Positions 13,711-31,639 of a stretch of DNA of 58,384 nt are shown here, piece after piece. The notes below the pieces were generated by a model. The model saw only the letters and a program-made list of their open reading frames with translations, did no database searches and had not been told where the DNA came from. Position 1 is the first letter of the stretch, and every line of letters begins with the position of its first letter. A program made the position numbers and the translations under genes. The stretch is from assembly GCF_020055635.1 (NCBI RefSeq), contig NZ_JAIPUT010000026.1, positions 1-58,384 on the forward strand. The letters are read 5' to 3'. Source of the stretch: Marivita sp. Lineage in GTDB: Bacteria > Pseudomonadota > Alphaproteobacteria > Rhodobacterales > Rhodobacteraceae.

Positions 13711-14607
13711 CTACCTCTCGGGCGGCTGGTGCGTCAGCCCGTAGCTTTCGAAGATTTCGGCGATCCGCCCGTCGGACAGGGCGGCGAAGATGGCGTCGTC
13801 GACCGAGTAGCTGAGCCCGCGATAGGCGAAGTGACTGCCTGTCCCGAGCGTCCACCGGGACTTGGCGAAACCGGGCAACGGCGGCTGATGGATCGCAATC
13901 CCGTCGACCGCACCGTATTCAAGCTGCGCCAGGGGTCCCATCGCTGCCATCACCTCTCCCTCCGCAAGAGCCTGCATCGCGGCCTGCATCGTCGGGTAGC
14001 GTCGCACACCCCGGGCCAGTTGCCCACCGGCAAAGCTGGTCAGGTAGAAATCGGCGATGGAATCGTTCTCGACCGCCACCGTGTCGATGCGGAAATAGGC
14101 CGGAACCGGCCCGCCATCGGGATAGTCGGCCTCGGAATAGGCGATGGCGATGCTTTCGGTCATGTACTGGCCGGTGAACACCACCTGTTCGACCCGGCAA
14201 TTGAAGGCGCTGTCATAGGGCACGCGAAGCATCACGTTCGACACCGCCCCGCCGACCACCGGCCCCTGCCAGATGTTGTTGCGCAGATCGGCATCGAGGT
14301 TTTCGCCCGCCGTGACGAACTTGAACCGCGGCGCCACACCAAGATCCTCGGCGATGATCCGCGCGATATCGATATCTATGCCGCGCGGCTTGCCCGCCTC
14401 CTCCCAGCTGTAGGGCGGGTAGTCCTCGTAGACCGCGAAGGTCATGAACCCCCGGTCCATGATCTGGTCGATGTCCTGGCCGACGATGTCGCGGCTGGCG
14501 TTCTGCGGCTTGGGCTGCGGGATGAAATCGGCGCAGGGGTCGCTGGCCATGGCGGGGGTCGCGAGGGCCAGCAGGGCCGCTGTGAAGGTGGCGCGCAGAC
14601 GCATCAT
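13711..14607 (-). CDS. Quinoprotein-dehydrogenase-associated binding protein (MoxJ/XoxJ-like)
   Basis: A 298-aa secreted protein with a clear signal peptide (cleavage near AMAS-DPC). It has a solute-binding fold of the amino-acid-binding type: FMTFAVYEDYPPYSWEE and GIDIDIARIIAEDLG are characteristic of the family annotated near PQQ dehydrogenases. MoxJ/XoxJ proteins interact with methanol dehydrogenase in the periplasm and may help its activation rather than transport. It starts 4 nt after pedF, so the two are co-transcribed. No dehydrogenase gene is adjacent; the PQQ enzyme lies 15 kb away. Confidence 0.82.
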   Translation of the reverse strand: MMRLRATFTAALLALATPAMASDPCADFIPQPKPQNASRDIVGQDIDQIMDRGFMTFAVYEDYPPYSWEEAGKPRGIDIDIARIIAEDLGVAPRFKFVTAGENLDADLRNNIWQGPVVGGAVSNVMLRVPYDSAFNCRVEQVVFTGQYMTESIAIAYSEADYPDGGPVPAYFRIDTVAVENDSIADFYLTSFAGGQLARGVRRYPTMQAAMQALAEGEVMAAMGPLAQLEYGAVDGIAIHQPPLPGFAKSRWTLGTGSHFAYRGLSYSVDDAIFAALSDGRIAEIFESYGLTHQPPER

Positions 14608-14611
14608 GGGA

Positions 14612-15310
14612 TCAGTGTGCCGCCGACAGACCGATCGTCAAGGCCTCGGCGGCGCGGGCATAGGCCTCTTGCGTGCCGTCGATCAGGTTTGCCGCGCGAT
14701 AGGCCGCGCTGTCGGCGACGGGGGCGCCGGACACGGTCTCGATATCGGCCGCGATTTCGGCAAGCCGGGTCTTGAGCGCATCGGCATCGGCAGAAGACGC
14801 ATCGTCGGCATATCCGACGATCTGGTCGCGCAGCGCCTTGAGCTCATCCGCCACCTCTTCCATCGACGCGTCATCGGGGCGCGTCTCGATATAGGTGCGG
14901 ATCGCCCAGGCGGCATCCTGCCCCAGCAATTCGCCGAATTCCGGCATCTTGGTGGTGCCGTTCTGGGTATACCCGAAGCGGAAGCGTTCGATATACCATT
15001 CATCGCCGTATTCCTCGGCTTCGAGGAACCGCACATCTGGGGCCAGGCCGCCCGAAATCGCCTCGAGGCCATGGCAGCGGGCGCAGTTCTGGTTGTAGCC
15101 CGACGCGCCGATCTCGACCGCGCGGGCCCAGACCTCTTCGCCGACGGCTTCGGCGCGGTACGGGTTCTCGGTCAGCCATTCGTCGCCGGTTTCCGGCAAG
15201 CCAGCCGTATCGACCGCCTGCGGGGCCACATCGCCATGCGCCTGCACAAGCGTGGCGACGGCACTCAGCGCCAGTGCGGCGCATGCGGATTTGAGAGTGA
15301 AAGCGGTCAT
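14612..15310 (-). CDS. pedF: Cytochrome c-550 PedF-like
   Basis: A 232-aa secreted mono-haem cytochrome c. A signal peptide (MTAFTLKSACAALALSAVA) is followed by the haem motif CARCHG and a likely Met ligand in TTKMPEFGELLG. The C-terminal ~90 residues are an alpha-helical extension. PedF-type cytochromes accept electrons from PQQ-dependent ethanol dehydrogenases. I chose the ATG at 15310 because it gives a normal signal peptide and has a GGAGGA Shine-Dalgarno. The divergent region to the lutA-like gene contains a motif also found before the cytochrome gene at 28992. Confidence 0.85.
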   Translation of the reverse strand: MTAFTLKSACAALALSAVATLVQAHGDVAPQAVDTAGLPETGDEWLTENPYRAEAVGEEVWARAVEIGASGYNQNCARCHGLEAISGGLAPDVRFLEAEEYGDEWYIERFRFGYTQNGTTKMPEFGELLGQDAAWAIRTYIETRPDDASMEEVADELKALRDQIVGYADDASSADADALKTRLAEIAADIETVSGAPVADSAAYRAANLIDGTQEAYARAAEALTIGLSAAH

Positions 15311-15413
15311 GGGGTCCTCCTCAGGCACAACTGTGTCTTGCCGGATATGTACCGAGGCCCCATCGATGCGGATATTGGACTTTCGTGGCGCGACAGGGCG
15401 ATTCCGGTCCATT

Positions 15414-15439
15414 CGGCCCGAGACAATGGTCGTATTTCC
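15414..15439 (-). promoter_or_regulatory. Shared motif GGAAATACGACCA-N8-GGCCG, copy A
   Basis: On the minus strand, facing pedF, GGAAATACGACCA is followed after 8 nt by GGCCG. The identical 13-mer with identical spacing to GGCCG occurs at 28884-28909, facing the cytochrome c gene at 28992. It lies 104-129 nt upstream of the pedF start codon. It is a probable activator site common to the quinoprotein regulon. Confidence 0.65.
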
Positions 15440-15485: not shown

Positions 15486-16664
15486 ATGCGAAACACGTCT
15501 GTTGCGTGCGCCGTCGCCTGTGCGATGGGCCTTGGGCTCGGCTCGGCCTCAAGCGCCCAGGTCGAGGTGGCGGTCCACTATCTCAAGCAGGTCGTGGAGG
15601 CGCCGCCAACCCTGTCGAACCTCGATCCGATCCCGGACGACCTGGGCCTGCGGGGGGCCGAGCTCGGGCTGGAAGACAACATCACCACCGGGCGCTTCCT
15701 GGGGCAGACCTACACGCTCGCCGTGACCGAGGTGGCCCCCGACGGAGATTTCGCAGGGGCCGCCCGCGCGGCACTGGCAGAGGGCGATCTGCTGGTGCTG
15801 GATGCGCCGGCCGACATGGTGACCGCGGTGGCCGATCTTCCCGAGGCGGCGGCAGCGCTGCTGTTCAATGCCGGGGCTGCGGATGTCGCGCTGCGCGGCG
15901 ACCGGTGCCGGGCGAACCTGCTGCACACCCTGCCCTCCTACGCGATGAAGGCCGATGCGCTGATGCAGTTCTTCGTGCAGCGCCGCTGGGACGACATCGC
16001 GCTGATCGCGGGCGACCGCCCCGACGACCAGGCCTGGGCCGACACGCTGGAGGCCTCGGCGCGCAAGTTCGGGCTGTCCTTCGGCGCGCGCAAGACCTGG
16101 GCCTTCGACGCCGACATGCGCCGCAACGCGTCCCAGGAAGTGCCGCTCTTCACCCAGGACCTGGGCGAGTACGACGTGCTGCTGGTGGCCGACGCAGCCG
16201 ATGATTTCGCGCGCTACATCTCGTTCAACACCTGGCGGCCCCGGCCTGTTGCAGGCTCCGAAGGGCTGCGCCCGGTCACATGGCACCGCGTGGTCGAGGC
16301 CTGGGGGGCCGCGCAGCTTCAGTCGCGGTTCGAAGACCTGGCCGAGCGCCCGATGCAGGACCGCGATTATGCCACATGGGCGGCGCTGCGCGCCATCGGA
16401 GAGGCCGTCACCCGCACGGGCGCGGCAGACGCCGGAACCCTGCGCGGCTACATGCTGTCCGAGGACTTCGAACTGGCCGGCTTCAAGGGCCGCCCGCTGA
16501 CCTTCCGCAGCTGGAACGGCCAACTGCGCCAGCCGATCCCGCTGGTGCATGAACGCGCGCTGGTGGCGCAGGCCCCGCTCGAAGGCTTCCTGCACCAGCG
16601 CACCGAACTGGACACGCTGGGCCTCGATCTGCCCGAAAGCGGCTGCACCGCCTTCGAAAACTGA
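15486..16664 (+). CDS. PQQ-system ABC transporter substrate-binding protein (LutA-like)
   Basis: A 392-aa periplasmic protein with a signal peptide (cleavage near SSAQ). It belongs to the branched-chain-amino-acid-receptor-like family found in PQQ-dependent alcohol dehydrogenase ABC systems. The order binding protein, YVTN propeller, small protein, ATPase, ABC-2 permease resembles the set named lut in Methylorubrum, which is implicated in lanthanide handling (from memory, not a search). The ATG at 15486 has GGGAGGA upstream. It is divergent from pedF and the first gene of a five- or six-gene plus-strand operon. Confidence 0.78.
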   Translation: MRNTSVACAVACAMGLGLGSASSAQVEVAVHYLKQVVEAPPTLSNLDPIPDDLGLRGAELGLEDNITTGRFLGQTYTLAVTEVAPDGDFAGAARAALAEGDLLVLDAPADMVTAVADLPEAAAALLFNAGAADVALRGDRCRANLLHTLPSYAMKADALMQFFVQRRWDDIALIAGDRPDDQAWADTLEASARKFGLSFGARKTWAFDADMRRNASQEVPLFTQDLGEYDVLLVADAADDFARYISFNTWRPRPVAGSEGLRPVTWHRVVEAWGAAQLQSRFEDLAERPMQDRDYATWAALRAIGEAVTRTGAADAGTLRGYMLSEDFELAGFKGRPLTFRSWNGQLRQPIPLVHERALVAQAPLEGFLHQRTELDTLGLDLPESGCTAFEN

Positions 16665-16748: not shown

Positions 16749-17717
16749 ATGAAACTGCCGATCCTCACCACCCTGACCGCCGCCCTGCTGTCGAGCACGG
16801 CCCTGGCGGACGAGATCTGGGTGACCAATGAGAAAGACGACACGATCAGCGTGATCGACATCGAGACGCTTGAAGTCGTGCGCACGATCGAAACCGGCGA
16901 ACGCCCGCGCGGGATCACCTTTTCCAAGGATTTCTCGGTGGTCTACATCTGCGCCTCGGACAGCGATTCGGTGCAGGTGATGGACCCGGACACCGGCGAG
17001 ATCCTGCATGACCTGCCCTCGGGAGAAGACCCCGAACAGTTCGTGCTGGCTCCGGACAACCGCCATCTCTACATCGCCAACGAGGACGATGCGATCACCA
17101 CCGTGGTCGACACCGTCACGCGCACCGTCGTGGCGCAGATCGACGTCGGCATCGAACCCGAAGGCATGGCGGTCAGCCCCGATGGCAAGATCGCCATCAC
17201 CACCTCGGAAACCACCAACATGGCGCATTGGATCGACACCGAAACCCAGCAGTTGTTCGCCAACACTCTGGTGGATTCGCGCCCCCGTCATGCCGAATTC
17301 GTCAAGGACGGCACCGAGCTCTGGGTGAGTTCCGAAATCGGCGGCACCATCACCGTGTTCGACGTGGCGACCCAGACCGAAAAGGCCAAGATCGAATTCG
17401 AGGTGGCCAACATTCACCCCGACCGCGTGCAGCCTGTGGGCTTTGAATTCACCGCCGGGGACACACATGCCTTTGTCGCCCTGGGACCGTCGAACCACGT
17501 GGCGGTCGTCAATTCGGACAGCTACGAGGTCGAGGATTACATCCTTGTCGGCCGCCGGGTCTGGCACATGGATTTCAACGCCGACCGGACGCAGCTTTTC
17601 ACCACCAACGGCGTGTCCGGCGACGTCACCGTGGTCGATGTGGCCAGCCGCAAGGCGATCAAGAGCATCAAGGTGGGCCGTTTCCCCTGGGGGGCCGCGT
17701 TCCGGCCGACCGAGTGA
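16749..17717 (+). CDS. PQQ-dependent catabolism-associated YVTN beta-propeller protein
   Basis: A 322-aa periplasmic protein with a signal peptide (cleavage near ALADE). Repeats of the type VTNEKDDTISVIDIETLEVV and GKIAITTSETTNMAHWID mark a seven-bladed YVTN-type propeller. It belongs to the propeller family that accompanies ABC transporters in PQQ alcohol oxidation loci. The role is not proven; a ligand- or metal-binding periplasmic component is the usual proposal. A possible interaction with lanthanide or PQQ is inference. Confidence 0.82.
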   Translation: MKLPILTTLTAALLSSTALADEIWVTNEKDDTISVIDIETLEVVRTIETGERPRGITFSKDFSVVYICASDSDSVQVMDPDTGEILHDLPSGEDPEQFVLAPDNRHLYIANEDDAITTVVDTVTRTVVAQIDVGIEPEGMAVSPDGKIAITTSETTNMAHWIDTETQQLFANTLVDSRPRHAEFVKDGTELWVSSEIGGTITVFDVATQTEKAKIEFEVANIHPDRVQPVGFEFTAGDTHAFVALGPSNHVAVVNSDSYEVEDYILVGRRVWHMDFNADRTQLFTTNGVSGDVTVVDVASRKAIKSIKVGRFPWGAAFRPTE

Positions 17718-17791: not shown

Positions 17792-18238
17792 ATGAAACAG
17801 ACCCTTGCCGCCCTTGGCCTTGCCCTCCTCACCCCCGCGCTTGTCCTTGCCGATGGCGCCCCGCGCGAAGACTGGGGCCGCGCCGGCATCCTGTCCTCGG
17901 CCAACAAGGCCGATCTGCCGCCGATCACGCTCAGTTCCGGCATGCCTCTGGCGGACGCGCCCTGGGTGCTGACCTCGGGCACCTACTACGAGTTCGAGAT
18001 CGAGGGCGACGGATCGGCCGAACTGGCGCTGGAGGGATCGGAATTCTTTCGCGCCATCTGGATCGACGAGATCGTGGTGAACGATCTGGAAATCCGGCCC
18101 ATCGGAGTGAATTCCATCGAATTCGACGATGCCGGCTCCATGGAAATCGGTTTCGTGGCGATCAAACCCGGTGAATATTTCCTGCGCATTCCCGGCTCGA
18201 CCGGCGAGACGCAGCGGTTGGGGATCACCATCGAATAG
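17792..18238 (+). CDS. Secreted beta-rich protein of the PQQ/lut-like operon
   Basis: A 148-aa protein with a signal peptide (MKQTLAALGLALLTPALVLA). The mature part is acidic and beta-strand-like, ending GEYFLRIPGSTGETQ, reminiscent of a cupredoxin fold but with no Cys and no obvious copper ligand set. It takes the place where other PQQ loci often encode a CxxCW protein. The ATG at 17792 has GGAG 7 nt upstream; an alternative start lies 5 codons earlier. It lies between the propeller and ATPase genes, so it is probably a functional component. I do not recognise a named family. Confidence 0.65.
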   Translation: MKQTLAALGLALLTPALVLADGAPREDWGRAGILSSANKADLPPITLSSGMPLADAPWVLTSGTYYEFEIEGDGSAELALEGSEFFRAIWIDEIVVNDLEIRPIGVNSIEFDDAGSMEIGFVAIKPGEYFLRIPGSTGETQRLGITIE

Positions 18239-18378: not shown

Positions 18379-19095
18379 ATGAGTTTGCAGGTTGCCGGAC
18401 TGTCGTTCTCCTATGGCGGCAAGATCGCGTTGGAAGACGTGACCTTCGAGGTCGATGCCGGGCGCTTTGCGGCGCTGCTGGGGCCGAACGGGGCGGGCAA
18501 GTCCACGTTGTTTTCCCTGATGACGCGGTTGTTCGGCACGCAGGGTGGTTCGATTTCCATCGCCGGGCATGATCTGGCGGTCGCGCCTCTGGCGGCGATG
18601 GCGGATCTGGGGGTGGTCTTTCAGCAGACGACGCTCGACCTGGATCTGACGGTGCGGCAGAACCTGCGCTATTTCGCGGCCCTGCACGGTCTTTCGGGAC
18701 GCGAGGCGGACCGGCGAAGTGACGCGGCGCTGGAGCGCTTGGGGATGGCGGAACGGGCGGGCGAGAAGGCGCGGGCCCTGAACGGCGGGCATCGGCGGCG
18801 GACCGAGATTGCGCGGGCCTTGTTGCATGATCCCAAGGTATTGCTGCTGGACGAGCCGACGGTCGGTCTGGACGCCACGACGCGGGCGGCGTTGACGCGT
18901 CATATCCACGATCTGTGTGGTGATACCGGCGTGACGGTACTTTGGGCCACGCATCTGACCGACGAGGTGTCGGAGGATGACCAGGTGATCCTGCTGCATC
19001 GCGGGCGGGTGCTGGCGGATGGGCGTTGCGGGGCATTGCGCGGCGCGGCGTCGCTGCCCGCCTATTTCGCGCAGATGACGGGCGCGGCTGCATGA
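18379..19095 (+). CDS. PQQ-system ABC transporter ATPase (LutE-like)
   Basis: A 238-aa ABC ATPase. Walker A is GPNGAGKST (residues 35-43), the Q-loop lies in VVFQQTTLD, and Walker B is VLLLDEPT with a switch His in ATHL. The signature motif is LNGGHRRR instead of LSGGQ; I recall this variant as typical of the ATPases of PQQ-dependent alcohol dehydrogenase loci. It overlaps the permease gene by 4 nt (ATGA). Confidence 0.85.
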   Translation: MSLQVAGLSFSYGGKIALEDVTFEVDAGRFAALLGPNGAGKSTLFSLMTRLFGTQGGSISIAGHDLAVAPLAAMADLGVVFQQTTLDLDLTVRQNLRYFAALHGLSGREADRRSDAALERLGMAERAGEKARALNGGHRRRTEIARALLHDPKVLLLDEPTVGLDATTRAALTRHIHDLCGDTGVTVLWATHLTDEVSEDDQVILLHRGRVLADGRCGALRGAASLPAYFAQMTGAAA

Positions 19096-19892
19096 GCGGT
19101 GTCCGCCATGCCCTGGTCGCGATGCGGGCGATCGTGATCCGCGAGGCGCTGCGCTTCGTGCATCAGCGCGAGCGCTTCGTGGCGGCGCTGGTGCGGCCCT
19201 TGGTGTGGTTGCTGGTTTTTGCCGCCGGGTTTCGGGCGGCATTGGGGTTGTCGATCAGCCCGCCCTACCAGACCTATATCACCTACGAGACCTATATCGT
19301 GCCGGGGCTGTGCGGGATGATCCTGCTGTTCAACGGGATGCAATCGTCGCTGAGCCTTGTCTATGACCGCGAGATGGGCTCGATGCGGTTGTTGCTGACG
19401 GCGCCGCTGTCGCGGGCGTGGCTCTTGTTCAGCAAGCTCCTGGGGAGCACGATCATCTCGATCCTGCAGGTCTATGCGTTCCTCTTGGTGGCGTGGCTGT
19501 TCGATATCACGTTGCCCGGCTGGGGCTATGTCGCCGCCCTGCCCGCGCTGGTGCTGGCGGGGTTGATGCTGGGGGCGTTGGGGCTGGCATTGTCGAGTTT
19601 CATCAAGCAGCTGGAGAATTTCGCAGGGGTGATGAATTTCGTCATCTTCCCGATGTTCTTTCTCTCCTCCGCGCTCTACCCGCTGTGGAAGATGGCGGAG
19701 AGTTCGGAGCTGTTGCACGATATCTGCGCGGCCAATCCGTTCACCCACGCGGTCGAGCTGATCCGGTTCGCGCTTTATGTCGAGGTGAACCCGATGGCGC
19801 TTTTGTGGACGCTGCTGGCGACTGTGGCCTTCATGGCCCTTGCAGTATGGGGATATGACCCGGCGCGCGGGATGATGACGCGCAAGGGGTGA
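19092..19892 (+). CDS. ABC-2 type permease of the PQQ/lut-like system
   Basis: A 266-aa integral membrane protein with about six hydrophobic segments and the ABC-2 family pattern (SLVYDREMGSMRLLLTAPLSR before the central helices, NPFTHAVELIRFAL near the end). ABC-2 permeases are commonly exporters, so the direction of transport by this system, which also has a periplasmic binding protein, is not obvious. The start at 19092 is set by the 4-nt overlap with the ATPase gene. Confidence 0.83.
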   Translation: MSGVRHALVAMRAIVIREALRFVHQRERFVAALVRPLVWLLVFAAGFRAALGLSISPPYQTYITYETYIVPGLCGMILLFNGMQSSLSLVYDREMGSMRLLLTAPLSRAWLLFSKLLGSTIISILQVYAFLLVAWLFDITLPGWGYVAALPALVLAGLMLGALGLALSSFIKQLENFAGVMNFVIFPMFFLSSALYPLWKMAESSELLHDICAANPFTHAVELIRFALYVEVNPMALLWTLLATVAFMALAVWGYDPARGMMTRKG

Positions 19893-19945
19893 TCTACGAC
19901 CATAGAAAGGGTGATCGAAAGCGTGGATTGCGATAGGATTGCGAC

Positions 19946-20500
19946 ATGAGACATATCCTGATCCCGTTGAGCTGCGCGCTTGCGCTGAGTGCCCCCGCCC
20001 TTTGGGCCGAACCCGAGGACGATGATCCGGGGGGTGTGCTGAACCCCGACGAGATGACCTGGCAATCCATGCTGGACCGTGCCGAGAAAGGCGAGACCGG
20101 CATGGTGCTCTGTTCGACCGGGTACATGATGACCAAGTCCGGGGATCACGCGACGGCGCGGGCGCTGTTCGAGAATTGTGCCAATGCCGGCTATACCGGG
20201 GCGATGACCTGGATGAGCCAGCTCGACAACAACGGGCTGGGCGGGGAGTATGACCCCGATGCCAGTGCCGCCTGGGACCGGCAGGCGGCGGAACTGGGCG
20301 ACCCGGTGGGCAAGTTCAACCACGGGCTGAACCTGATGCGCGGGCACGGCATCGCCAGGGACGAGGCGCTGGGGCGGCGCTTTGTCGATGAGGCCGCCGC
20401 GGAAGGACTGCCGGTGGCCCGGCGGTTGCAGGGCGCGGGCTATGATCTGGACGAGGTCACGCCGGATGCCGACAACTGGAAATACGCGCCGGTGTTCTAG
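19946..20500 (+). CDS. Secreted Sel1-repeat-like protein
   Basis: A 184-aa protein with a signal peptide (cleavage near LWAEP). Short helical repeats such as ATARALFENCANAGYTGAMTWMSQL and GRRFVDEAAAEGLPVARRLQ resemble Sel1/TPR-like repeats, which are protein-interaction modules. It follows the ABC-2 permease after 53 nt and is probably the tail of the same operon. No enzymatic motif is present, and a role in the quinoprotein system is inference from position. Confidence 0.68.
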   Translation: MRHILIPLSCALALSAPALWAEPEDDDPGGVLNPDEMTWQSMLDRAEKGETGMVLCSTGYMMTKSGDHATARALFENCANAGYTGAMTWMSQLDNNGLGGEYDPDASAAWDRQAAELGDPVGKFNHGLNLMRGHGIARDEALGRRFVDEAAAEGLPVARRLQGAGYDLDEVTPDADNWKYAPVF

Positions 20501-20575
20501 GCGCAGGCCCGTTGGAACCGGAAGACCGCTGCGCGTTCCGCGCCCTACCCGGATCGGTCGTTTCCGACAAACGGG

Positions 20576-21274: not shown

Positions 21275-21339
21275 GGATGTAATCCGGATATGTCGTGTGA
21301 CGTGGCGCCGGGAACGCCCTGCCCCCGGCGCGCCTGGTT

Positions 21340-23814: not shown

Positions 23815-23860
23815 GTGCGGGATCCATTACCTGAGAGACAAGACTGACGAAACGAAGGCG

Positions 23861-24235: not shown

Positions 24236-25152
24236 CCCTGTGCGGCCCAGACATAGGCGACGTAGCCCGACAGCATCACCACACCCACGACGCGTCCGAC
24301 CTGAGGTCGGGTCAGCAGAAGCAGCATCAGGACCCCGGAAACGCCGATCATGACCGGCAGGTCGAAGGTCAGGAACCGCGACGCCACCGGGATCGGCGCG
24401 ATCAGGGCGGTCATTCCCAGAATGCCCAGCACGTTGAAGATGTTCGAGCCGATGATGTTGCCGATGGCGATCTCCGATTGTTTCCGGATGGCCGCGATCA
24501 CCGAGGTCGCCAGTTCGGGCAGCGACGTGCCGACCGCGACGATTGTCAGGCCGATGAAGGCCTCGGATATGCCGAAGCCGCGCGCGATGGACACGGCCCC
24601 GTCGACGAGGAACCGGGCGCCGAACATCAGGGCGACAAGCCCGCCGATGACCCAAAGGACCGACAGGATTGCAGAGGCCGGAGCGCCCACGCTCTCGTCC
24701 TCGGCCACTGTCGCGCCGGGTTGCCGGTAGGCCCAGACAAGGTATCCCGCAAGGCCCGCCACAAGCACGAGCCCCGACAGCCGGCCGACCTGGCCCATGG
24801 CGAAGATCGGCACCAGCACGAGGGCCGCCGCGATCATCACCGCCGTGTCCCGCCGCAGGGTCGCCCCCGACACGCGAATGGGCCAGACAAGGGCTGTCAG
24901 GCCGACGATCAGCAGAACGTTGGCGATGTTCGAGCCGACGATATTGCCAAGCGCGATATCCGGAACGCCGCGCCATGCCGCCTGCACCGACACCAGAAGC
25001 TCGGGTGTCGACGTGCCGAAGCCGACCACGGTCAGGCCGATCAGCAGCGGCGGAATCGCCATGCGCCGCGCGATACCGACGCTGCCGCGCACCAGCGCTT
25101 CGCCCCCGAAAAACAGGCCGACCAAGCCAATGACAAGATAGAGATAGTCCAC
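24232..25152 (-). CDS. Calcium/sodium antiporter, CaCA family (YrbG-like)
   Basis: A 306-aa inner-membrane cation exchanger with about ten helices. The two inverted alpha repeats are clear: GTSTPELLVS with GNIVGSNIANVLLI, and GTSLPELATS with GNIIGSNIFNVLGI. The acidic residues in the two PEL motifs bind the cation. I prefer the GTG start at 25152, which lies 8 nt after AAAGGG; a GTG two codons earlier would be too close to it. It is first in the leftward CaCA-small protein-secDF-exoD cluster. Confidence 0.87.
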   Translation of the reverse strand: MDYLYLVIGLVGLFFGGEALVRGSVGIARRMAIPPLLIGLTVVGFGTSTPELLVSVQAAWRGVPDIALGNIVGSNIANVLLIVGLTALVWPIRVSGATLRRDTAVMIAAALVLVPIFAMGQVGRLSGLVLVAGLAGYLVWAYRQPGATVAEDESVGAPASAILSVLWVIGGLVALMFGARFLVDGAVSIARGFGISEAFIGLTIVAVGTSLPELATSVIAAIRKQSEIAIGNIIGSNIFNVLGILGMTALIAPIPVASRFLTFDLPVMIGVSGVLMLLLLTRPQVGRVVGVVMLSGYVAYVWAAQG

Positions 25153-25412
25153 GTCCACTGCCCTTTCGGGCAGGTGATCTGCCCCTTCGGCATCAAGTGT
25201 GCGCGACCGGGATCGCCTGCAAGCCATCCCTGAAAATTTTCCGCCGAAACTGTCGCAGGCCGCTGTGGCGGTGCCGCATCCCGCAAGGGTCAGCGCCGAT
25301 GTCGTCTGGGCGCCCTTGGTGTCTGATGCTGTCAGGGCTGTTTGCCGTATCTGCTTTCCAAACGCAGCCAGCCGGAGTAGGCATCCCAACTTCTGAGCGA
25401 CAGGACAGCACC

Positions 25413-25958
25413 ATGGCGCAAAATGCCACCATTCATAAAGTCGAACTCTCGGTCTCCGACATGGATCGTCACTATTACGAGACCCACAAGCTGACCATTG
25501 CCAAGCACCCCTCCGAGACGGATGAGCGGCTGATGGTGCGCCTGCTTGCGTTCGCGTTGAATGCCCATGAGCATCTGGAGATGACCAAGGGCCTGTCCAC
25601 GGATGATGAACCGGACATCTGGCAGAAAAGCCTGAGCGGCGAGCTTGATGTATGGGTGGCGCTCGGGCTTCCCAGCGAGAAGGTGGTGCGGCAATCCTGT
25701 GCCAAGGCAGGCAAGGTGATCGTCTATTCCTATGGCGGCAGGCCAGCCGAAATCTGGTGGGACAAGATCAAGAACAGCACCACCCGGTTCGACAATCTAC
25801 GGGTGGTGAATTTTTCCGAAACCGACACAAGCGCCCTGTCGGAACTGGCCGCGCGCGCGATGAAGCTTCAGGTCAACATTCAGGACGGCGACGTGATGGT
25901 CAGTGCGGAAGACGCCATCGTCTACGTGACCCCGGTGACGTGGAAAGACGCGGGATAG
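25413..25958 (+). CDS. yaeQ: YaeQ family protein
   Basis: A 181-aa protein with family hallmarks ATIHKVELSVSDMDRHYYE, HPSETDERLMVRLLAFAL and VYSYGGRPAEIWW. YaeQ proteins have a PD-(D/E)XK nuclease-like fold with a conserved core, but the cellular role is poorly defined. It is transcribed divergently from the CaCA gene across about 260 nt. The start at 25413 has CAGGACAG upstream. Confidence 0.88.
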   Translation: MAQNATIHKVELSVSDMDRHYYETHKLTIAKHPSETDERLMVRLLAFALNAHEHLEMTKGLSTDDEPDIWQKSLSGELDVWVALGLPSEKVVRQSCAKAGKVIVYSYGGRPAEIWWDKIKNSTTRFDNLRVVNFSETDTSALSELAARAMKLQVNIQDGDVMVSAEDAIVYVTPVTWKDAG

Positions 25959-26021
25959 CGCCTTCTTGCGCGCCACCGGAAGTCCGGTCCGCGAGACCGA
26001 CCGCAGCAAAAGGCCCCCGGC

Positions 26022-27029
26022 TCAGGCAGCCACGGCGTTTTCCGACAGATCGGCCAGAACCTCGGCCGCGATTTCGAAAGAGCGGATGCGTGCCGCGGGG
26101 TCGTGGATCATGCCGGTCACGATCAGTTCGTCCGGCTGAAAGCTGTCGATCAACGCCCCGAGCCGGTCCCTGACCGTGGCCGCCGAGCCGGTGGCAGAAC
26201 AGGACAGGGCCTGCTCCACCGAGGCCATCACCGGTGCCGGGATCTCGTCGTCGACATGATGGGTTGGTAGTGGCAGCTTGCCCGGCCTGCCGGTTCTCAA
26301 CCGGGCGAAGGCCAGAAGCTGCGAGGAGCGCAGGAACGCCGCCTCCGCATCGGTCTGGGCCGCACAGACCCCGGCCGCCATCATCACGTAGGGGTCTTTC
26401 AGACGGGCCGACGGCTGGAACGTGCTGCGATAGATCGACAGCGCCTGTTCCAGCATGGCCGGCGCGAAATGCGACGCAAAGGCATAGGGCAGCCCGAGCC
26501 AGGCGGCCAGCTGGGCCCCGTAAAGACTTGAGCCGAGGATCCAGACCGGAACCCTGGTGCCCGCTCCGGGTATCGCACGCACCGGCGTGTCGTCTGAGCT
26601 GTCGTCGAAATAGCCGATCAGTTCCTGCACGTCCTGCGGAAAGCTGTCCTCGGGTGCCATGTGCCGGCGCAGCGCCCTTGCCGTGGCCATGTCGGTGCCG
26701 GGGGCCCGGCCCAGCCCCAGATCGATCCGGCCCGGATATAGCGTGGCAAGGGTGCCGAACTGTTCGGCAATGACAAGCGGTGCATGGTTGGGCAGCATGA
26801 TGCCACCCGCACCGATCCGCATGGTCGAGGTTGCCGAGGCCACGTGCCCGATCACCACGGCGGTGGCCGCGCTTGCTATGCCGGGCATGTTGTGATGCTC
26901 GGCAAGCCAATAGCGGTGATAGCCGAACCGCTCGGCGGCACGGGCAAGGTCGACTGTCGCGGCCAGCGCGTCAGCGGCGGTCTTGCCTTCGGGGATGGGC
27001 GACAGGTCGAGAAGCGAGAATTTCTGCAT
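26022..27029 (-). CDS. Luciferase-like flavin-dependent monooxygenase (LLM class)
   Basis: A 335-aa FMN-dependent TIM-barrel oxidoreductase of the bacterial-luciferase superfamily, MsnO8/YhbW-like. Characteristic segments are [43 protein letters not shown] and [14 protein letters not shown]. The substrate is unknown. The ATG at 27029 has GGAGG 5 nt upstream; a longer frame offers no better site. It lies downstream of the TauAB-like genes on the same strand but 156 nt away, with a GC-rich CCCCGC/GCGGGG hairpin between. Confidence 0.85.
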
Positions 27030-27185
27030 GGCAGCCTCCGTTGACCGAAAGCTAATCATTCGGGGCGGCCGGTCCAAGCCCCTGTCGCGTCATCCCCGCA
27101 TCGCGGGGCAGCCGTGGCGGAATCAGTCAGTCGAGCCGTCCGGCGGGCTGATGCCTGGCATTCCCCCGATGCCGAAAGCACATAT

Positions 27186-27857
27186 CTAGGCGCGGCGCGG
27201 TCTGAGCCGTGCGGGCTGACCCGACAATTCGAGAATTCGGGTGGCAAGACGCTCGGCCTCGGGAATGGCGTGGGTGACCAGAAGCGTGGCGACAGGGTGG
27301 CTGTCGCGCAGGCGTTCGAAGAGCGACATCATCTCGTCAGAGAGGTCCGCATCGAGGCTGACGAAGGGTTCGTCCATCAGCAGGACATCGGGTTTGCCGG
27401 CAAAGGCGCGGGCAAGCGACAGGCGGCGTTGCTGGCCCAGGGACAATTGGTCCGGAAACGCGTCTCCGCGACCTGCGAGGCCCACCTCGTCCAGCGCCTT
27501 GTCGATCCCGGCCGGACCGAGGCCCAGCGTGATCCGCAGGTTTTCGGCCACACTGCGCCAGCGCATCAGGGTCGGCTCCTGAAACACCATGGCCAGCCTG
27601 TCGGGGCGTCGGACATGGCCTTGGTAGCGCGTTTCGAGTCCGGCGATGATCCGCATCAGCGTCGTCTTGCCCACACCCGAGGGTCCGGTGATCGCAACGG
27701 TTTCGCGCGGCGCGAGGTCGAGATCGACAGCCCCCAGCACGGACTTGTCGTCGAACCGCATGCTTTCGATCGCGACGCGGAGAACCGGTGAAGGCGCCTT
27801 CGCCGGGTCCTGGGTGCTGCCGGAGCCCACCAGCCGGAGTGTCGGGGCCGTTGCCAA
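27186..27857 (-). CDS. ABC transporter ATPase, TauB/SsuB type
   Basis: A 223-aa ABC ATPase of the nitrate/sulfonate/taurine importer class. Walker A is GPSGVGKTT, the Q-loop VFQEPTLMRW, the signature LSLGQQRR, Walker B VLLMDEPF and the switch TLLVTHA. No ATG precedes the conserved N terminus; a TTG at 27857, located 2 nt after the binding-protein stop and 7 nt after GGAAG, is the likely start. No permease is adjacent; the orphan permease at 5325-6074 is of the matching class. Confidence 0.8.
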   Translation of the reverse strand: MATAPTLRLVGSGSTQDPAKAPSPVLRVAIESMRFDDKSVLGAVDLDLAPRETVAITGPSGVGKTTLMRIIAGLETRYQGHVRRPDRLAMVFQEPTLMRWRSVAENLRITLGLGPAGIDKALDEVGLAGRGDAFPDQLSLGQQRRLSLARAFAGKPDVLLMDEPFVSLDADLSDEMMSLFERLRDSHPVATLLVTHAIPEAERLATRILELSGQPARLRPRRA

Positions 27858-27859
27858 GA

Positions 27860-28837
27860 TCAGCTTCCGGGCTGCACGAAGACACCTTCGGGCAGCGTCG
27901 TGGCCGCGCCGATCAGCTTTTCGCCGCCCAGTTCGCCCATCAGCGCCAGCATGCGCGCGGCGGCGGCTTCGTCGACCGGTTGATCGACGGGAATGCCCGC
28001 GATGAACCCGGCCTTGAGCGCCTCGAACTCGGCATCGGACTTGGCGTTCATGCGTGGGCGCAAACGGTCCCATTCGGCATCCGAACCGAGGAGCAGGTCT
28101 TTCGTCGCGCGGCTGGCGGCGGCCAGCCCCTTGACCAGTTCGGGATGGTCGCGCAGCATCTCGCCGCGCAGCACATAGCCCAGAAGCGGCGTCTCGGGAT
28201 CGAGACCCAGTTCACGCGCGGCTTCATCCACGGTGATGATCGGTGTCATGCCGCCTGCCTCCATCTTGGCGAGGAAGTGCCAGAAGTTGATCGCGCCATC
28301 CAGTTCGCCCTGAAGTCCGGTCTTGAAGATCAGCGGCGGCGCGCCGAAGACCTGTTCGGTCTCGGTCACGAGGTCCATGCCGTGCTTCTGTTGGGCATAG
28401 GCGCGCAGGATCAGCCAGCTCTTGTCGAGCGGCCCCCCGGCGATGCCGATCTTGCCGCCCCTCAGGTCGGCCAGCGACGTGGCGGTGCTGCCCTCGGGCA
28501 CCAGAAGCGCGCCCACGGCCTTGGAATAGGGCACGAAGATGTAATCGCGACCCTCGGCCCGCTGACGCGCGACCCAGAGCCAGTCGGACACGATCACGTC
28601 CGCCTCGCCGCCCTGAAACGCGACCTGCGCGGCCGAGCCTCCGGCGACGCCCTGCACCACCAGATCAAAGCCGTTGGCGGTGTCGAAGCCGTTATGCTGG
28701 ATGCTGTCGAGCTCCCAGTTCACGGTCCCGAATTCCAGCACGGCGGCCCGCAGAACCGGCGTTTCGGCACTGGCGGCGCCGGCGCAGAGCACAAGCGCGG
28801 CAGTGGTCGCGCGGATAGTGGCGAAAAAGCTCATCAT
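27860..28837 (-). CDS. ABC substrate-binding protein, TauA/NMT1-like
   Basis: A 325-aa periplasmic binding protein with a signal peptide (cleavage near ASAE). The family pattern of sulfonate/nitrate-type receptors is seen in GEADVIVSDWLWVARQR, LRGGKIGIAGGPLDKSWL and GELDGAINFWHFLAKME. The ligand is not deducible. It is divergent from a cytochrome c gene and next to a PQQ alcohol dehydrogenase; homologous importer genes near quinoproteins are usually of unknown ligand. The start is one of two consecutive ATGs (28837 or 28834) after GGGAGGAC. Confidence 0.82.
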   Translation of the reverse strand: MMSFFATIRATTAALVLCAGAASAETPVLRAAVLEFGTVNWELDSIQHNGFDTANGFDLVVQGVAGGSAAQVAFQGGEADVIVSDWLWVARQRAEGRDYIFVPYSKAVGALLVPEGSTATSLADLRGGKIGIAGGPLDKSWLILRAYAQQKHGMDLVTETEQVFGAPPLIFKTGLQGELDGAINFWHFLAKMEAGGMTPIITVDEAARELGLDPETPLLGYVLRGEMLRDHPELVKGLAAASRATKDLLLGSDAEWDRLRPRMNAKSDAEFEALKAGFIAGIPVDQPVDEAAAARMLALMGELGGEKLIGAATTLPEGVFVQPGS

Positions 28838-28883: not shown

Positions 28884-28909
28884 GGAAATACGACCAAAGG
28901 ATGTGGCCG
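28884..28909 (+). promoter_or_regulatory. Shared motif GGAAATACGACCA-N8-GGCCG, copy B
   Basis: GGAAATACGACCA (28884-28896), 8 nt, GGCCG (28905-28909), pointing at the cytochrome c gene whose ATG is 83 nt downstream. It is identical in both blocks and in spacing to copy A in the pedF promoter (15414-15439). Confidence 0.65.
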
Positions 28910-28991: not shown

Positions 28992-29402
28992 ATGACACGC
29001 TTCGCCCTGATTGCCGCAGCCAGTTTCTGCGCCCTGCCCGCCCTTGCCAGCGAAACCACCTTCGAGCAGGTCAAGATCGACGCCGGAAAAGCCCTGTTCG
29101 AGACGGAGTGCCGACGCTGTCATGCAGTGGAGCCGACGGACGCCTCATACGGTCCGCCGCTCGAGAACATCGTCGGACGCGGGGCGGGAACATACGAGAA
29201 TTACGACTATTCCATCGCCTTGGAAGCCTCGGGCATCGTCTGGACCCCGGCAGCGTTGCGGGCGTGGATGGAGGACAATGACGGCTTCATGCCCGGCACC
29301 AAGATGCGCCATGTCGGCATCGAGGACCGGACGGTTCAGGATTTCATCCTGGCCTATCTCGTGTCGATCACCACGCAGGACAATTCGGCGATCTCGGAGT
29401 GA
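28992..29402 (+). CDS. c-type cytochrome next to the PQQ alcohol dehydrogenase
   Basis: A 136-aa secreted mono-haem cytochrome c of the c2/c550 class. A signal peptide (cleavage near ALASE) precedes the haem motif CRRCHAVEP, and the likely axial Met lies in FMPGTKM. It is a plausible electron acceptor for the dehydrogenase encoded 468 nt downstream on the same strand. A good Shine-Dalgarno (AAGGAG) precedes the ATG. It is divergent from the TauA-like gene, with motif copy B between them. Confidence 0.87.
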   Translation: MTRFALIAAASFCALPALASETTFEQVKIDAGKALFETECRRCHAVEPTDASYGPPLENIVGRGAGTYENYDYSIALEASGIVWTPAALRAWMEDNDGFMPGTKMRHVGIEDRTVQDFILAYLVSITTQDNSAISE

Positions 29403-29869
29403 AATGAGGCTGGTAGGCGGCACCGGCGGTGCCGCTTATGGCTTGTGTGGTCGTTGCTGAATCATGTGTAGGCTGTGTGCTTGCACGCCTCGTATTTCTC
29501 CGGGTTGGTGCGTGAAATCACGCACCCTACGCTTGCTGTAGAAATCGGGTGAAGTGACCACCTTACCCAAATGGCGCAAAACCAATGACTCTCCCGTGTC
29601 AAAAACCTGGGGCAGAACGCGAAGGCTTTTGACAGGTTTTCCGACGCAGCGGCGCGACCAAAGCAACGGCCGCAGGCTTGCATGTGCGACACGCTTACCA
29701 CCTTGACCGATTCGCTCGACGACGTGAACGCCCCTGTCAACCTCCCAAAGGTCTTACGACCCAAGTCGCGTACAACAAAATTTCGTCGCCCCTATACTGA
29801 CCGGCAATCGTCCTTATGCGCCCCCGTGCATCTGGATATCCGCAACTGAAGTTCATGGGAGGAATACGA
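29403..29869 (+). promoter_or_regulatory. 467-nt leader/promoter region of the PQQ alcohol dehydrogenase
   Basis: No gene is supported. It contains a REP-like inverted pair (29468-29530) and, at 29655-29672, CGACCAAAGCAAC followed by GGCCG, which resembles the shared quinoprotein motif with 7 instead of 8 nt spacing and no GGAAATA half. A Shine-Dalgarno (GGGAGGAA) precedes the dehydrogenase ATG. The long non-coding interval before a highly regulated gene suggests promoter and leader control. Confidence 0.45.
29468..29530. repeat. Stand-alone REP-like inverted pair
   Basis: GTAG (29468-29471) is followed by an imperfect GCTGTGTGC/GCACGCC stem. Then, in the opposite orientation, comes the perfect hairpin GGTGCGTGAAATCACGCACC (29507-29526) followed by CTAC. 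The second unit closely matches a REP beside the RAYT gene at 4713-4736. It shows spread of the REP 24 kb from its transposase. Confidence 0.8.
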
Positions 29870-31639
29870 ATGAACAGATTTGTTGCCGCCGTCACAGCCA
29901 GCATACTCGCCGCGACCGGCGCGCTTGCCCAAGGTGTGACAGAGGACATGCTGGCCAATGACCAGACGATGACCCATCAGGTTGTCACCAACGGGATGGG
30001 GCGGCATTTGCAGCGCTATTCGCCGCTGGACACGCTGAACAAGGACAACGTCAAGAACCTTGTTCCCGCCTGGGCGTTCAGCCTCGGGGGTGAAAAGCAG
30101 CGTGGTCAGGAGACCCAGCCGCTGATCTATGATGGCATCATGTACATCACCGGATCGTATTCGCGGCTTTACGCGATCGACGTGAACACCGGCGAAGAGC
30201 TCTGGCAGTACGACGCGCGTCTGCCCGAAGGCATCCTGCCCTGCTGTGACGTGATCAACCGGGGCGCGGCGCTCGCGGGTGACAAGGTGATCTTCGGCAC
30301 GCTGGATGCGCGCATCGTGGCACTGGACGCCAAGACCGGCGACGTGGTCTGGCGCGATCAGATCGACGATTACAAGGCAGGCTATTCCTATACGGCAGCG
30401 CCTCTGGTCGTTGGGGATCTGGTGATCACCGGCAATTCGGGTGGCGAATTCGGCATCGTCGGATCGGTTCAGGCCCGCAATGTCGAAAACGGCGATCTGG
30501 TCTGGGAACGCCCGGTGATCGAAGGCCATATGGGAACGCTCAATGGCGAAGAAAGCACCATGACCGGCACGCTCAACGCGTCATGGCCGGGCGACATGTG
30601 GAAGACGGGTGGCGGGGCCACATGGCTTGGCGGGTCTTATGACGAAGATACCGACACGCTGGTCTTCGGAACGGGCAACCCGGCGCCGTGGAACAGCCAC
30701 CTGCGCAACGCGGGTACCCCGACCGACGGCAATACCGGCGACAACCTCTATGCCGCCAGCCGTCTGGGCCTTGATCCCGCGACAGGCGAGATCAAGTGGC
30801 ATTACCAGACCACGCCGCGCGAAGGCTGGGATTACGACGGTGTGAACGAGGTGGTCTCGTATACCGACCGCGCCGGGAACATGCGCTATGCGACCGCCGA
30901 CCGGAACGGGTTCTTCTATGTCCTGAACCGCGAGGACGGCGCGTTTGTCGATGCCTATCCGTTCGTCAAGGACATCTCGTGGGCCAGCGATATTGGCGAT
31001 GACGGGCGTCCGATCTTTGTCGAGGACAACCGCCCCGGCGATCCGACCGCGTCGGCGGATGGCAAGAAGGGCGACGTCGTGTTCTCCTCCCCCGGCTTCC
31101 TTGGGGGCAAGAACTGGATGCCGATGGCCTTCTCGCAGCGGACCGGCAACTTCTACGTGCCCTCCAACGAATGGGGCATGGACATCTGGAACGAGCCGAT
31201 CACCTACAAGAAGGGCGCGGCGTATCTGGGCTCCGGCTTTACCATCAAGCCGAATTACGAAGACCATATCGGCTCGCTCAAGGCGATCGACCCCGACACC
31301 GGCGAATGGAAGTGGGAATACAAGAACGACGCCCCGCTCTGGTCGGGCGTCATGACAACCGCGGGCGGCCTGGTGTTCTTCGGCACACCCGAGGGCAAGT
31401 TCCTTGCGCTGGATGACGAAACCGGCGACGTGCTCTGGTCGTTCCAGACCGGGTCCGGCATCGTGGGTCAGCCAATCACCTGGGACCAGGATGGCGAGCA
31501 ATATGTCTCGATCATCTCGGGCTGGGGTGGTGCGGTTCCGCTCTGGGGCGGGGAAGTGGCCAAGAAGGTCAACTACCTGAACCAGGGGGGCACGCTCTGG
31601 ACCTTCCGCCTGCCGAAGGAACTCGCTTCGGCGAACTGA
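29870..31639 (+). CDS. PQQ-dependent alcohol dehydrogenase, predicted lanthanide type (ExaF/PedH/XoxF-like)
   Basis: A 589-aa periplasmic quinoprotein with a signal peptide (cleavage near ALAQ) and an eight-bladed propeller with W-motifs. The vicinal disulfide Cys125-Cys126 ([10 protein letters not shown]) is present. Metal and catalytic residues align as Glu193 (GGEFGIVG), Asn270 (GTGNPAPWN) and Asp321 in WDYDGVNE. The extra Asp323 two residues after the catalytic Asp is the established marker of lanthanide-dependent enzymes; calcium enzymes have Ala, Ser or Thr there. The overall sequence is closer to ExaF/PedH-type ethanol dehydrogenases than to XoxF5, judged by eye. Substrate: a primary alcohol or aldehyde. 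It ends before a strong terminator. Confidence 0.9.

What the first reader, a model, noticed from the sequence alone, without database searches (positions are those of the whole stretch)
13711..31639. A dispersed periplasmic quinoprotein system centred on a predicted lanthanide-dependent alcohol dehydrogenase
Seen: the PQQ dehydrogenase at 29870 has WDYD, i.e. an Asp two residues after the catalytic Asp, plus CC, Glu and Asn metal-site residues. Known: that extra Asp marks lanthanide enzymes (XoxF, ExaF/PedH). In the same 18 kb lie pedF, a MoxJ/XoxJ-like protein, another cytochrome c, and an operon of binding protein, YVTN propeller, small secreted protein, LNGGH-type ATPase and ABC-2 permease resembling lut/PQQ ABC clusters. 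Inference: these blocks form one lanthanide-responsive oxidation and metal-handling regulon, although unrelated operons (SecDF, YaeQ, LLM) separate them.
Basis: partly seen in the sequence, partly recalled or inferred. Interest (0 to 1): 0.75.

Follow-up and report, generated by a model that had tools for sequence, protein, structure and literature searches.

The report
Lanthanide alcohol oxidation with scavenged PQQ
This marine bacterium carries one conserved gene island for a rare-earth-dependent alcohol-oxidising enzyme, but its genome lacks key genes for making the enzyme's organic cofactor PQQ and instead carries a likely PQQ-capture transporter, a pattern repeated in many of its relatives.

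Summary
In detail: 29870-31639 encodes a PedH/ExaF-type dehydrogenase with the extra lanthanide Asp (kept in 80 of 80 relatives), near PedF, PedG-like and PedA1A2BC-type genes. "Dispersed" is misleading: relatives lack the separating SecDF/YaeQ/LLM genes (0 of 80 loci); here a 6.7 kb insertion splits one island. A heptamer, TACGACC, lies in four island promoter gaps and is the top 7-mer upstream of exaF and two other island genes in 130 non-Marivita loci. One regulon is well supported; lanthanide response is untested.

New: this near-complete genome lacks pqqC and pqqE, so it probably cannot make PQQ. The unremarked binding protein beside exaF (27860-28837) is a homologue of PqqT, a PQQ-binding protein (PDB 9b1u/9b1v, E=1e-69); its likely permease lies 21 kb away. 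Of 79 ExaF-bearing Rhodobacteraceae genomes, 37 lack both genes; 35 of these 37 keep the PqqT homologue, against 20 of 42 with the genes. A correlated-evolution test gives p=1.5e-4; a stricter paired test is not significant. Best reading: a ped/exaF island in a PQQ non-producer that captures the cofactor with a PqqT-type ABC system. PQQ binding and growth were not tested.

The parts
5325..6164 (-). ABC permease (BPD_transp_1), predicted cognate permease of the PqqT-like system
   Evidence: Pfam PF00528. In the 79 ExaF genomes it occurs with the SBP in 54, both absent in 24 (two of these hold distant pairs at 39-44%), SBP alone in 1. Contiguous SBP-permease-ATPase in L151, L168, L170, L172 and L046.
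6151..8274 (+). NosR-like membrane iron-sulfur protein (island neighbour)
   Evidence: NosR model 429 bits, below its cut-off of 1000; Fer4_5; in 28 of 69 long loci
8271..9143 (+). ApbE-family flavin transferase (island neighbour)
   Evidence: PF02424; in 35 of 69 long loci
9321..13021 (-). Three-subunit molybdenum hydroxylase (FAD 9321-10109, Mo 10124-12499, 2Fe-2S 12551-13021), candidate aldehyde oxidase
   Evidence: glyceraldehyde/CO-dehydrogenase-type models, all below cut-offs; AYRGAGR motif; Mo subunit in 32 of 69 long loci
13090..13626 (-). CoxG-like protein
   Evidence: PF06240; in 35 of 69 long loci
13711..14607 (-). PedG/XoxJ-like periplasmic binding protein
   Evidence: SBP_bac_3; in 59 of 69 long loci
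14612..15310 (-). Cytochrome c-550 PedF
   Evidence: TIGR04494 over cut-off; in 57 of 69 long loci
15428..15434 (-). TACGACC site, pedF/pedA1 divergent promoter region
15525..16664 (+). PedA1-type substrate-binding protein (PQQ_ABC_bind)
   Evidence: TIGR03863 over cut-off
16749..17717 (+). PedA2-type YVTN beta-propeller
   Evidence: TIGR03866 over cut-off
17792..18238 (+). Small secreted protein of the PedABC operon, no known family; Asp-rich N terminus in many homologues
   Evidence: no family at E<=0.001; alignment; in 48 of 69 long loci
18379..19095 (+). PedB-type ATPase
   Evidence: TIGR03864 over cut-off
19092..19892 (+). PedC-type ABC-2 permease
   Evidence: TIGR03861 over cut-off
19895..19901 (+). 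TACGACC site upstream of the Sel1-like gene
19946..20500 (+). Sel1-repeat-like secreted protein
   Evidence: weak PF08238, below cut-off; in 51 of 69 long loci
20496..27193 (.). Segment that interrupts the island in this genome (ExoD, SecDF, Na/Ca exchanger, YaeQ, LLM), bounded by a 9-bp direct repeat TCTAGGCGC; not part of the system
   Evidence: M. lacus L005 aligns to window 13727-20501 and 27185-29396 back to back; repeat at 20496 and 27185
27186..27761 (-). ABC ATPase of the PqqT-like system
   Evidence: ABC_tran; in 38 of 69 long loci, like the SBP
27860..28837 (-). PqqT homologue, predicted PQQ-binding periplasmic protein
   Evidence: PDB 9b1u/9b1v, 239 bits, E 1e-69; family profile 287 bits; Lys139 conserved in 77 of 77 rows
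28889..28895 (+). TACGACC site between the PqqT homologue and cytochrome c
28992..29402 (+). Cytochrome c (c-550/c2-like)
   Evidence: PF00034; in 31 of 69 long loci
29755..29761 (+). TACGACC site upstream of exaF
29870..31639 (+). ExaF/PedH-type PQQ alcohol dehydrogenase, predicted lanthanide-dependent
   Evidence: PedH 6zcv 791 bits, ExaA 1flg 649, XoxF 4mae 331; TIGR03075 over cut-off

Best explanation
This is a Rhodobacteraceae (probably Marivita) version of the ped/exaF alcohol-oxidation island in an organism that does not make PQQ. Shown from sequence: a PedH/ExaF-type dehydrogenase with a complete lanthanide site; PedF and a second cytochrome c; a PedG-like protein; a PedA1A2BC-type ABC system; absence of pqqC and pqqE from a near-complete genome; and an ABC system, split over two places, whose binding protein is homologous to PqqT. 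Inferred: external PQQ enters the periplasm (probably by diffusion, as no PqqU-like receptor was seen), PqqT binds and holds it, and it ends up in ExaF, which with a lanthanide oxidises alcohols to aldehydes and passes electrons to PedF or the other cytochrome c; the neighbouring molybdenum hydroxylase may take aldehydes further. The blocks are co-regulated through a TACGACC site, perhaps by the response regulator found beside exaF in many relatives. Why an ABC importer into the cytoplasm serves a periplasmic enzyme is not explained.
For: ExaF identity and site. Contiguity in relatives. No pqqC and no pqqE over cut-off in the own genome; the same models ring strongly in relatives. 37 of 79 ExaF genomes lack both genes; 34 of these 37 are at least 90% complete. 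[quoted passage not shown] PqqT homologue in 35 of 37 genomes without pqqC against 20 of 42 with it, Fisher p=4.5e-6; Pagel test LRT 22.7, p=1.5e-4. Specificity: within the locus SBP and ATPase are in 26 of 31 loci without and 12 of 38 with pqqC (p=2.3e-5), whereas pedG, pedF, pedA1, pedA2, small protein, pedB, pedC, Sel1 and cytc do not differ (p 0.34 or more). SBP in 73 of 121 genomes with ExaF or pqqC against 6 of 273 with neither. Permease present in 54 of the 55 SBP-bearing ExaF genomes. Shared site.
Against: No binding, growth or expression data. Two genomes without pqq genes (G374, G207) lack a close PqqT homologue, though G207 has two distant ones at 39-43% with permeases at 43-44%. 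About half of the genomes with pqqC also carry PqqT, so it is not unique to non-producers. On well-supported branches alone the independent-pairs test is weak (about 4 pairs with, 1 against, median p 0.375). The tree is an ExaF gene tree, not a species tree. Importing a periplasmic cofactor into the cytoplasm is paradoxical. Mo-hydroxylase and NosR-like genes also differ weakly by PQQ status (p about 0.03). The TACGACC site is not found upstream of the permease (1 of 14 loci, 0.6 expected; none in the window). pqqA, B and D were not searched.
Confidence: 0.7

Rival explanations
1. Ordinary ped/exaF lanthanide alcohol-oxidation cluster; PQQ is made by undetected or divergent genes and the SBP system is a general or unrelated importer.
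For: PQQ-ADH plus PedF/PedG/PedABC is a known module (PMC12997753, sections 5 and 11 and part 1 of section 16 read). 20 of 42 genomes with pqqC carry the same SBP.
Against: pqqC and pqqE are missing together in 37 of 37 and present together in 42 of 42 ExaF genomes, so detection works in this family. The SBP is a full-length PqqT homologue and is nearly confined to genomes with ExaF or pqqC.
Confidence: 0.15
2. The PqqT-like ABC system serves lanthanide or PQQ-lanthanide complex handling rather than PQQ supply as such.
For: PqqT with PQQ binds lanthanides, and 9B1V holds PQQ and Gd(III) (PMC12828617 passages). The SBP shares the TACGACC site with exaF.
Against: A pure lanthanide role would not predict the link to absence of PQQ synthesis; the 79 genomes compared hold an ExaF of the same type whether or not they have pqq genes.
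Confidence: 0.12
3. The association of PqqT with missing PQQ genes reflects shared ancestry or joint transfer of an island variant, not function.
For: The island is on a plasmid in one relative looked at; independent pairs on starred branches are few and weak.
Against: 20 changes in pqq and 19 in SBP on the ExaF tree; Pagel test p=1.5e-4; other genes of the same island do not show the association; in 8 of 37 genomes without pqq genes the SBP is not within 6 kb of exaF, though some of these lie on short contigs.
Confidence: 0.12
4. The blocks are separate neighbours and not one regulon.
For: In this window unrelated genes lie between them and operons run in different directions. The site is not upstream of the permease and ranks only 25th upstream of pedA1 outside Marivita.
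Against: Contiguity in relatives and a shared promoter element ranked first of 8192 7-mers upstream of exaF (121 of 129), SBP (44 of 57) and the Sel1-like gene (59 of 89) in non-Marivita loci.
Confidence: 0.05

Closest known systems
Pseudomonas putida ped cluster (PedH, PedF, PedG, PedA1A2BC)
   Same: Same dehydrogenase type, cytochrome c-550 PedF, PAAT-type binding protein, ABC system with SBP, YVTN propeller, ATPase and permease
   Different: P. putida also has the Ca enzyme PedE and a pqq operon (PMC12997753); here ExaF is the only dehydrogenase found with PF13360, pqqC and pqqE are missing, a PqqT-like ABC and a Mo hydroxylase are linked, and no homologue of the relatives' exaF-side regulators is in the window
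Methylobacterium extorquens ExaF and PqqT
   Same: ExaF-type enzyme; PqqT (PDB 9b1u/9b1v) is homologous along its length to the window SBP
   Different: In M. extorquens PqqT is said to supplement endogenous synthesis (PMC12828617 passage); here no synthesis genes are found, and permease and SBP/ATPase genes are 21 kb apart
M. extorquens lut cluster
   Same: Its ABC part is called homologous to PedA1A2BC (PMC6839425 passages)
   Different: No LutH-like TonB receptor seen; lanmodulin was not searched for; lut sequences were not compared directly
PqqU (YncD) PQQ uptake in Gram-negatives
   Same: Same need: a quinoprotein in a PQQ non-producer
   Different: [quoted passage not shown] the two TonB barrels here list only BtuB, colicin I receptor, one other TonB receptor and ShuA among solved structures at E<=1e-8; that PqqU is in that PDB copy was not checked
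XoxF methanol dehydrogenases
   Same: Extra Asp, PQQ, CC motif
   Different: 331 bits against 791 for PedH

Membership tests
ExaF/PedH (PQQ-ADH type 2b, lanthanide) | Asp two residues after the catalytic Asp | tested here: met
   WDYD aligned to PedH WDFD; ExaA has WDFS; 80 of 80 relatives keep it
ExaF/PedH (PQQ-ADH type 2b, lanthanide) | Closer to PedH/ExaA than to XoxF/MxaF | tested here: met
   791 and 649 bits against 331 or less; no tree with XoxF was made
ExaF/PedH (PQQ-ADH type 2b, lanthanide) | Activity with Ln and not Ca | not testable with these tools
   needs purified enzyme
XoxF methanol dehydrogenase | Best match within the XoxF/MxaF group | tested here: not met
PedA1A2BC/Lut-type ABC system | SBP, propeller, ATPase and ABC-2 permease families over curated cut-offs | tested here: met
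   TIGR03863, TIGR03866, TIGR03864, TIGR03861
PedA1A2BC/Lut-type ABC system | LutH TonB receptor (methylotroph version) | tested here: inconclusive
   two TonB barrels only, nearest structures BtuB and ShuA; no LutH sequence compared; P. putida also lacks it (PMC6839425 passages)
PedA1A2BC/Lut-type ABC system | Lanthanide-dependent growth phenotype | not testable with these tools
   needs mutants
PqqT PQQ-binding protein | Full-length homology to PqqT | tested here: met
   residues 29-321 to 5-298 of 9b1u, E 1e-69
PqqT PQQ-binding protein | Lysine 142 | tested here: met
   Window Lys139 aligns with the chain's LDK lysine and is conserved in 77 of 77 rows (window plus 76 loci, some from the same genome). 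That this is K142 follows from numbering (offset 27) and is inferred; K142 is named as a mutated residue in PMC12828617; its role in PQQ binding is recalled.
PqqT PQQ-binding protein | Companion ABC permease and ATPase | tested here: met
   permease in 54 of 55 SBP-bearing ExaF genomes, contiguous operons in L046, L151, L168, L170, L172; that PqqT itself has ABC neighbours is recalled
PqqT PQQ-binding protein | Nanomolar PQQ binding | not testable with these tools
   needs binding assay
MoxJ/XoxJ | Match to a MoxJ/XoxJ model or structure | tested here: not met
   SBP_bac_3 only in Pfam, no MoxJ family, no XoxJ/MxaJ chain listed; PedG is itself said to have low identity to XoxJ (PMC12997753)
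PQQ producer | pqqC and pqqE present | tested here: not met
   pqqA, B and D not searched

The most novel reading that the evidence does not exclude
A large share of Rhodobacteraceae run a lanthanide-dependent alcohol dehydrogenase with PQQ taken from other organisms, using a PqqT-type ABC system in place of both biosynthesis and the outer-membrane importer PqqU; loss of PQQ synthesis in this family happens almost only where PqqT is present. Rare-earth alcohol oxidation in the sea would then depend on PQQ cross-feeding, and the ABC-2 pair PedBC might return cytoplasmic PQQ to the periplasm.
Probability: 0.5. Interest if true: 0.75.

Novelty: new variant of a known kind. Interest (0 to 1): 0.62.

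Why it matters
A 2025 survey (PMC12124388, passages read) inferred that Alphaproteobacteria are likely primarily PQQ producers because PqqU is largely absent from them. Here 37 of 79 ExaF-bearing Rhodobacteraceae genomes lack pqqC and pqqE, and 35 of the 37 keep a PqqT homologue. If right, PqqT has a natural test bed (non-producers that should need it), PQQ is a shared vitamin-like good for marine lanthanide metabolism, and these bacteria need two scarce external factors, a rare earth and PQQ, to burn alcohols. The TACGACC element gives a handle on the whole regulon.

Tried and rejected
Considered that loss of PedBC beside exaF argued against a lanthanide role: rejected, as PedC is present over its cut-off in 19 of the 21 genomes searched whose fetched locus showed no pedC (24 loci given, L024 not held, L005 and L014 were positive controls; the two without are those of L065 and L084; one of the 21, L037, is a truncated locus). 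Considered XoxF identity: rejected. Considered that the SBP/ATPase pair was an importer without permease: rejected after the permease at 5325-6164 was found to co-occur with it. Considered missing pqq genes as assembly loss: unlikely, 34 of 37 genomes without them are at least 90% complete. Considered LutH or PqqU-like receptors: none seen. Structure comparison of the SBP and the small protein could not be made. A profile of the small protein found no solved relative (best E 0.98) and only one weak NCBIfam match in 1 of 32 members. Whether the motif also precedes pqqA in genomes with pqq genes: 8 of 32 regions, 1.4 expected (three pairs of these regions appear to be the same locus reached twice, all without the motif, so 8 of 29), so this holds for a subset. 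Repeats inside the insert were not informative.

Caveats on the motif: it was first noticed in Marivita, so the window count (4 of 6 matches in island promoter gaps) is post hoc; the 130 non-Marivita loci are the independent check, but they are related to each other, and the SBP and exaF upstream stretches can overlap where the genes are close.

Rows dropped or fixed before counts: G164 (in-frame stop in exaF) and G270 (partial exaF) were left out of the tree (77 tips) and the long-locus counts, but are in the 79. G164 counts as pqqC-bearing although its pqqC match is in two pieces below the cut-off; its pqqE is over the cut-off. G280, with a 49-bit pqqC match, was not counted as pqqC-bearing (84 instead of 85 genomes). 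The distant ExaF rows G056 and G421 (52-55%) were used only as outgroup. SBP hits under 50% identity were not counted as homologues. The pqqE search used E<=1e-60, the ExaF search E<=1e-150, the SBP search E<=1e-50. Of the 80 named loci 30 were not searched for pqqC because of the 50-locus limit, and L052 was not held (49 genomes, 31 with and 18 without pqqC). The named set and the family sample overlap in part. PF07995-type glucose dehydrogenases were not searched.

Full report
WHAT IS THERE. The window lies in a 4.94 Mb, 99.99% complete, 4.91% contaminated assembly. Its closest ExaF relatives are Marivita (M. lacus 96% identity); the genome labelled same genus, G425, has a contig of the same length as the M. 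hallyeonensis DSM 29431 record of L010, so the host is taken to be a Marivita. The gene at 29870-31639 belongs to the methanol/ethanol PQQ dehydrogenases (TIGR03075, 744 bits). Against solved structures it scores 791 bits with the lanthanide enzyme PedH, 649 with the calcium enzyme ExaA and 331 with XoxF. Its WDYD aligns with PedH WDFD and ExaA WDFS; the other metal-site residues and the CC pair are present. In 80 relatives the extra Asp is present in 80 of 80 (78 WDYD, 2 WDFD). That this Asp indicates lanthanide use is the assumption also made in PMC11996626 (passages read). A search of the whole genome with PF13360 found this gene and one other protein that I take to be BamB (the label is mine).

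THE ISLAND. NCBIfam names pedF and the four PedA1A2BC-type genes over their cut-offs. The binding protein at 13711 is SBP_bac_3 only in Pfam and best called PedG-like. In 80 named relatives, within 10 kb of exaF and with some loci cut by contig ends, pedA2 is found in 72, pedA1 in 71, pedG in 68, pedF in 67, the Sel1-like gene in 62, pedC in 55, the small protein in 52, cytc in 44, the ATPase in 40 and the SBP in 37; the genes that separate the blocks here are found in none. Where all are present the usual order is pedG< pedF< pedA1> pedA2> small> pedB> pedC> Sel1> ATPase< SBP< cytc> exaF>. The M. lacus locus aligns to window 13727-20501 and 27185-29396 back to back. The intervening 6.7 kb is bounded by a 9-bp direct repeat, TCTAGGCGC, at 20496 and 27185. 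Its SecDF is 42-45% identical to the best match in nine relatives searched, two of which appear to be the same genome, and 76% to one on a Roseicitreum plasmid; its G+C (66.0%) is close to the flanks (64.4 and 62.8%). It is an insertion between two convergent genes. Upstream, a molybdenum hydroxylase with an AYRGAGR motif (form II of the CO-dehydrogenase family, recalled), CoxG, ApbE and NosR-like genes recur in 28 to 35 of 69 long loci. In Tateyamaria omphalii the island is on a 60.5 kb plasmid and has a response regulator, a FIST protein and a PAS-domain protein next to exaF. Homologues of that response regulator (40% identity or more) are in 35 of 62 named loci with full flanks, but not in the window or in the five Marivita loci printed.

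ONE REGULON. Aligning promoter gaps of Marivita loci showed an invariant TACGACC in the pedF-pedA1 and SBP-cytc gaps and a nearly invariant one upstream of exaF. The window has six such heptamers; four are in island promoter gaps (15434-, 19895+, 28889+, 29755+). In 130 distinct non-Marivita loci it ranks first of 8192 7-mers upstream of exaF (121 of 129), SBP (44 of 57) and the Sel1-like gene (59 of 89), and 25th upstream of pedA1 (29 of 104). It is not enriched upstream of pedA2, pedB, pedC, pedG, the small protein, ApbE or the permease. In genomes with pqq genes it precedes pqqA in 8 of 32 regions (1.4 expected). The protein that binds it is unknown; an AgmR-like regulator is a guess from the ped cluster (PMC12997753). 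Nothing here shows a lanthanide response.

NO PQQ SYNTHESIS. pqqC and pqqE (best hit 49 bits against a cut-off of 381) are missing from the own genome. The pqqC model rang in no control genome, so relatives served as controls: 31 of 49 named ExaF relatives have pqqC and 18 do not, among them 7 of the 8 nearest (L005-L012). In a family sample of 394 genomes, about one per genus, 79 hold ExaF at 74% identity or more; 42 of these have pqqC and 42 of the 42 have pqqE; 37 have neither. pqqA, B and D were not searched.

THE PQQT HOMOLOGUE. The SBP at 27860-28837 matches PDB 9b1u/9b1v over residues 29-321 (239 bits, E 1e-69; profile 287 bits). [quoted passage not shown] The aligned lysine is conserved in 77 of 77 rows. 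The primary PqqT paper (Ho and Cotruvo 2019) was seen only as a citation in PMC12124388. The SBP is present at 50% identity or more in 35 of 37 ExaF genomes without pqqC, 20 of 42 with it, 18 of 42 genomes with pqqC but no ExaF, and 6 of 273 with neither. Fisher p for the first contrast is 4.5e-6. Of the 38 genomes with both pqqC and SBP, 7 have them within 9 kb of each other. On the ExaF tree there are 20 changes of pqq and 19 of SBP. The dependent model beats the independent one (LRT 22.7, 4 df, p=1.5e-4), with the fitted rate of pqq loss 5.1 where SBP is present and 0.002 where absent. The stricter independent-pairs test on starred branches is not significant. Other island genes serve as controls and do not follow PQQ status, except weak signals (p about 0.03) for Mo-hydroxylase and NosR-like genes. 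The permease at 5325-6164 occurs with the SBP in 54 of 79 genomes, both are absent in 24 (counting pairs under 45% identity in G207 and G283 as absent), and the SBP is alone in 1; the two genes are within 1.2 kb in 16 genomes, 1.2-30 kb apart in 29, further in 5 and on other contigs in 4.

MECHANISM. Inferred chain: PQQ from neighbours, diffusion across the outer membrane, capture by PqqT, loading of ExaF with a lanthanide, electrons to PedF or the other cytochrome c, aldehyde onward to the molybdenum hydroxylase. Only the gene content is shown. The start of ExaF has no twin-arginine pair, so cofactor loading in the cytoplasm is unlikely, and the role of an inner-membrane importer is an open puzzle; PqqT may mainly hold PQQ in the periplasm, or imported PQQ may be returned by another carrier.

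NOVELTY. The ped/exaF module and PqqT are known. I found no paper that reports PqqT in PQQ non-producers or PQQ-less Rhodobacteraceae with ExaF; searches were in an open-licence library, mostly judged from listings and passages, so this is not proof of absence. PMC12124388 (passages) infers from the absence of PqqU that Alphaproteobacteria are likely primarily producers; the present counts qualify that for this family. In roseobacters, XoxF-dependent growth on methanol and ethanol has been shown in Marinibacterium anthonyi La 6 (PMC5934484, passages).

Noticed in passing
window 20496-27193: 6.7 kb segment (ExoD, SecDF fusion, Na/Ca exchanger, YaeQ, LLM oxidoreductase) inserted between two convergent island genes, bounded by a 9-bp direct repeat; its SecDF is only 42-45% identical to the best match in nine relatives searched.
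   Followed up: partly
window 6151-9143: NosR-like membrane protein and ApbE flavin transferase recur beside the island (28 and 35 of 69 long loci); role in quinoprotein electron transfer unknown.
   Followed up: partly
window 17792-18238: Small secreted protein in the PedABC operon with no known family, many homologues with an Asp-rich N terminus; candidate metal-binding protein.
   Followed up: partly
L189 5570-9716: Response regulator, FIST-domain and PAS-domain proteins beside exaF on a Tateyamaria plasmid, the regulator also in 35 of 62 full named loci, not in the window; candidate regulators of the TACGACC regulon.
   Followed up: partly
L189 (plasmid NZ_CP019316.1): The island with the PqqT homologue is carried on a 60.5 kb plasmid; SBP homologues occur on 176 plasmid records, 74 Sinorhizobium and 40 Pseudosulfitobacter.
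   Followed up: no
L176 (G164): An exaF match with an in-frame stop in a genome whose pqqC match is also in two pieces below the cut-off.
   Followed up: no
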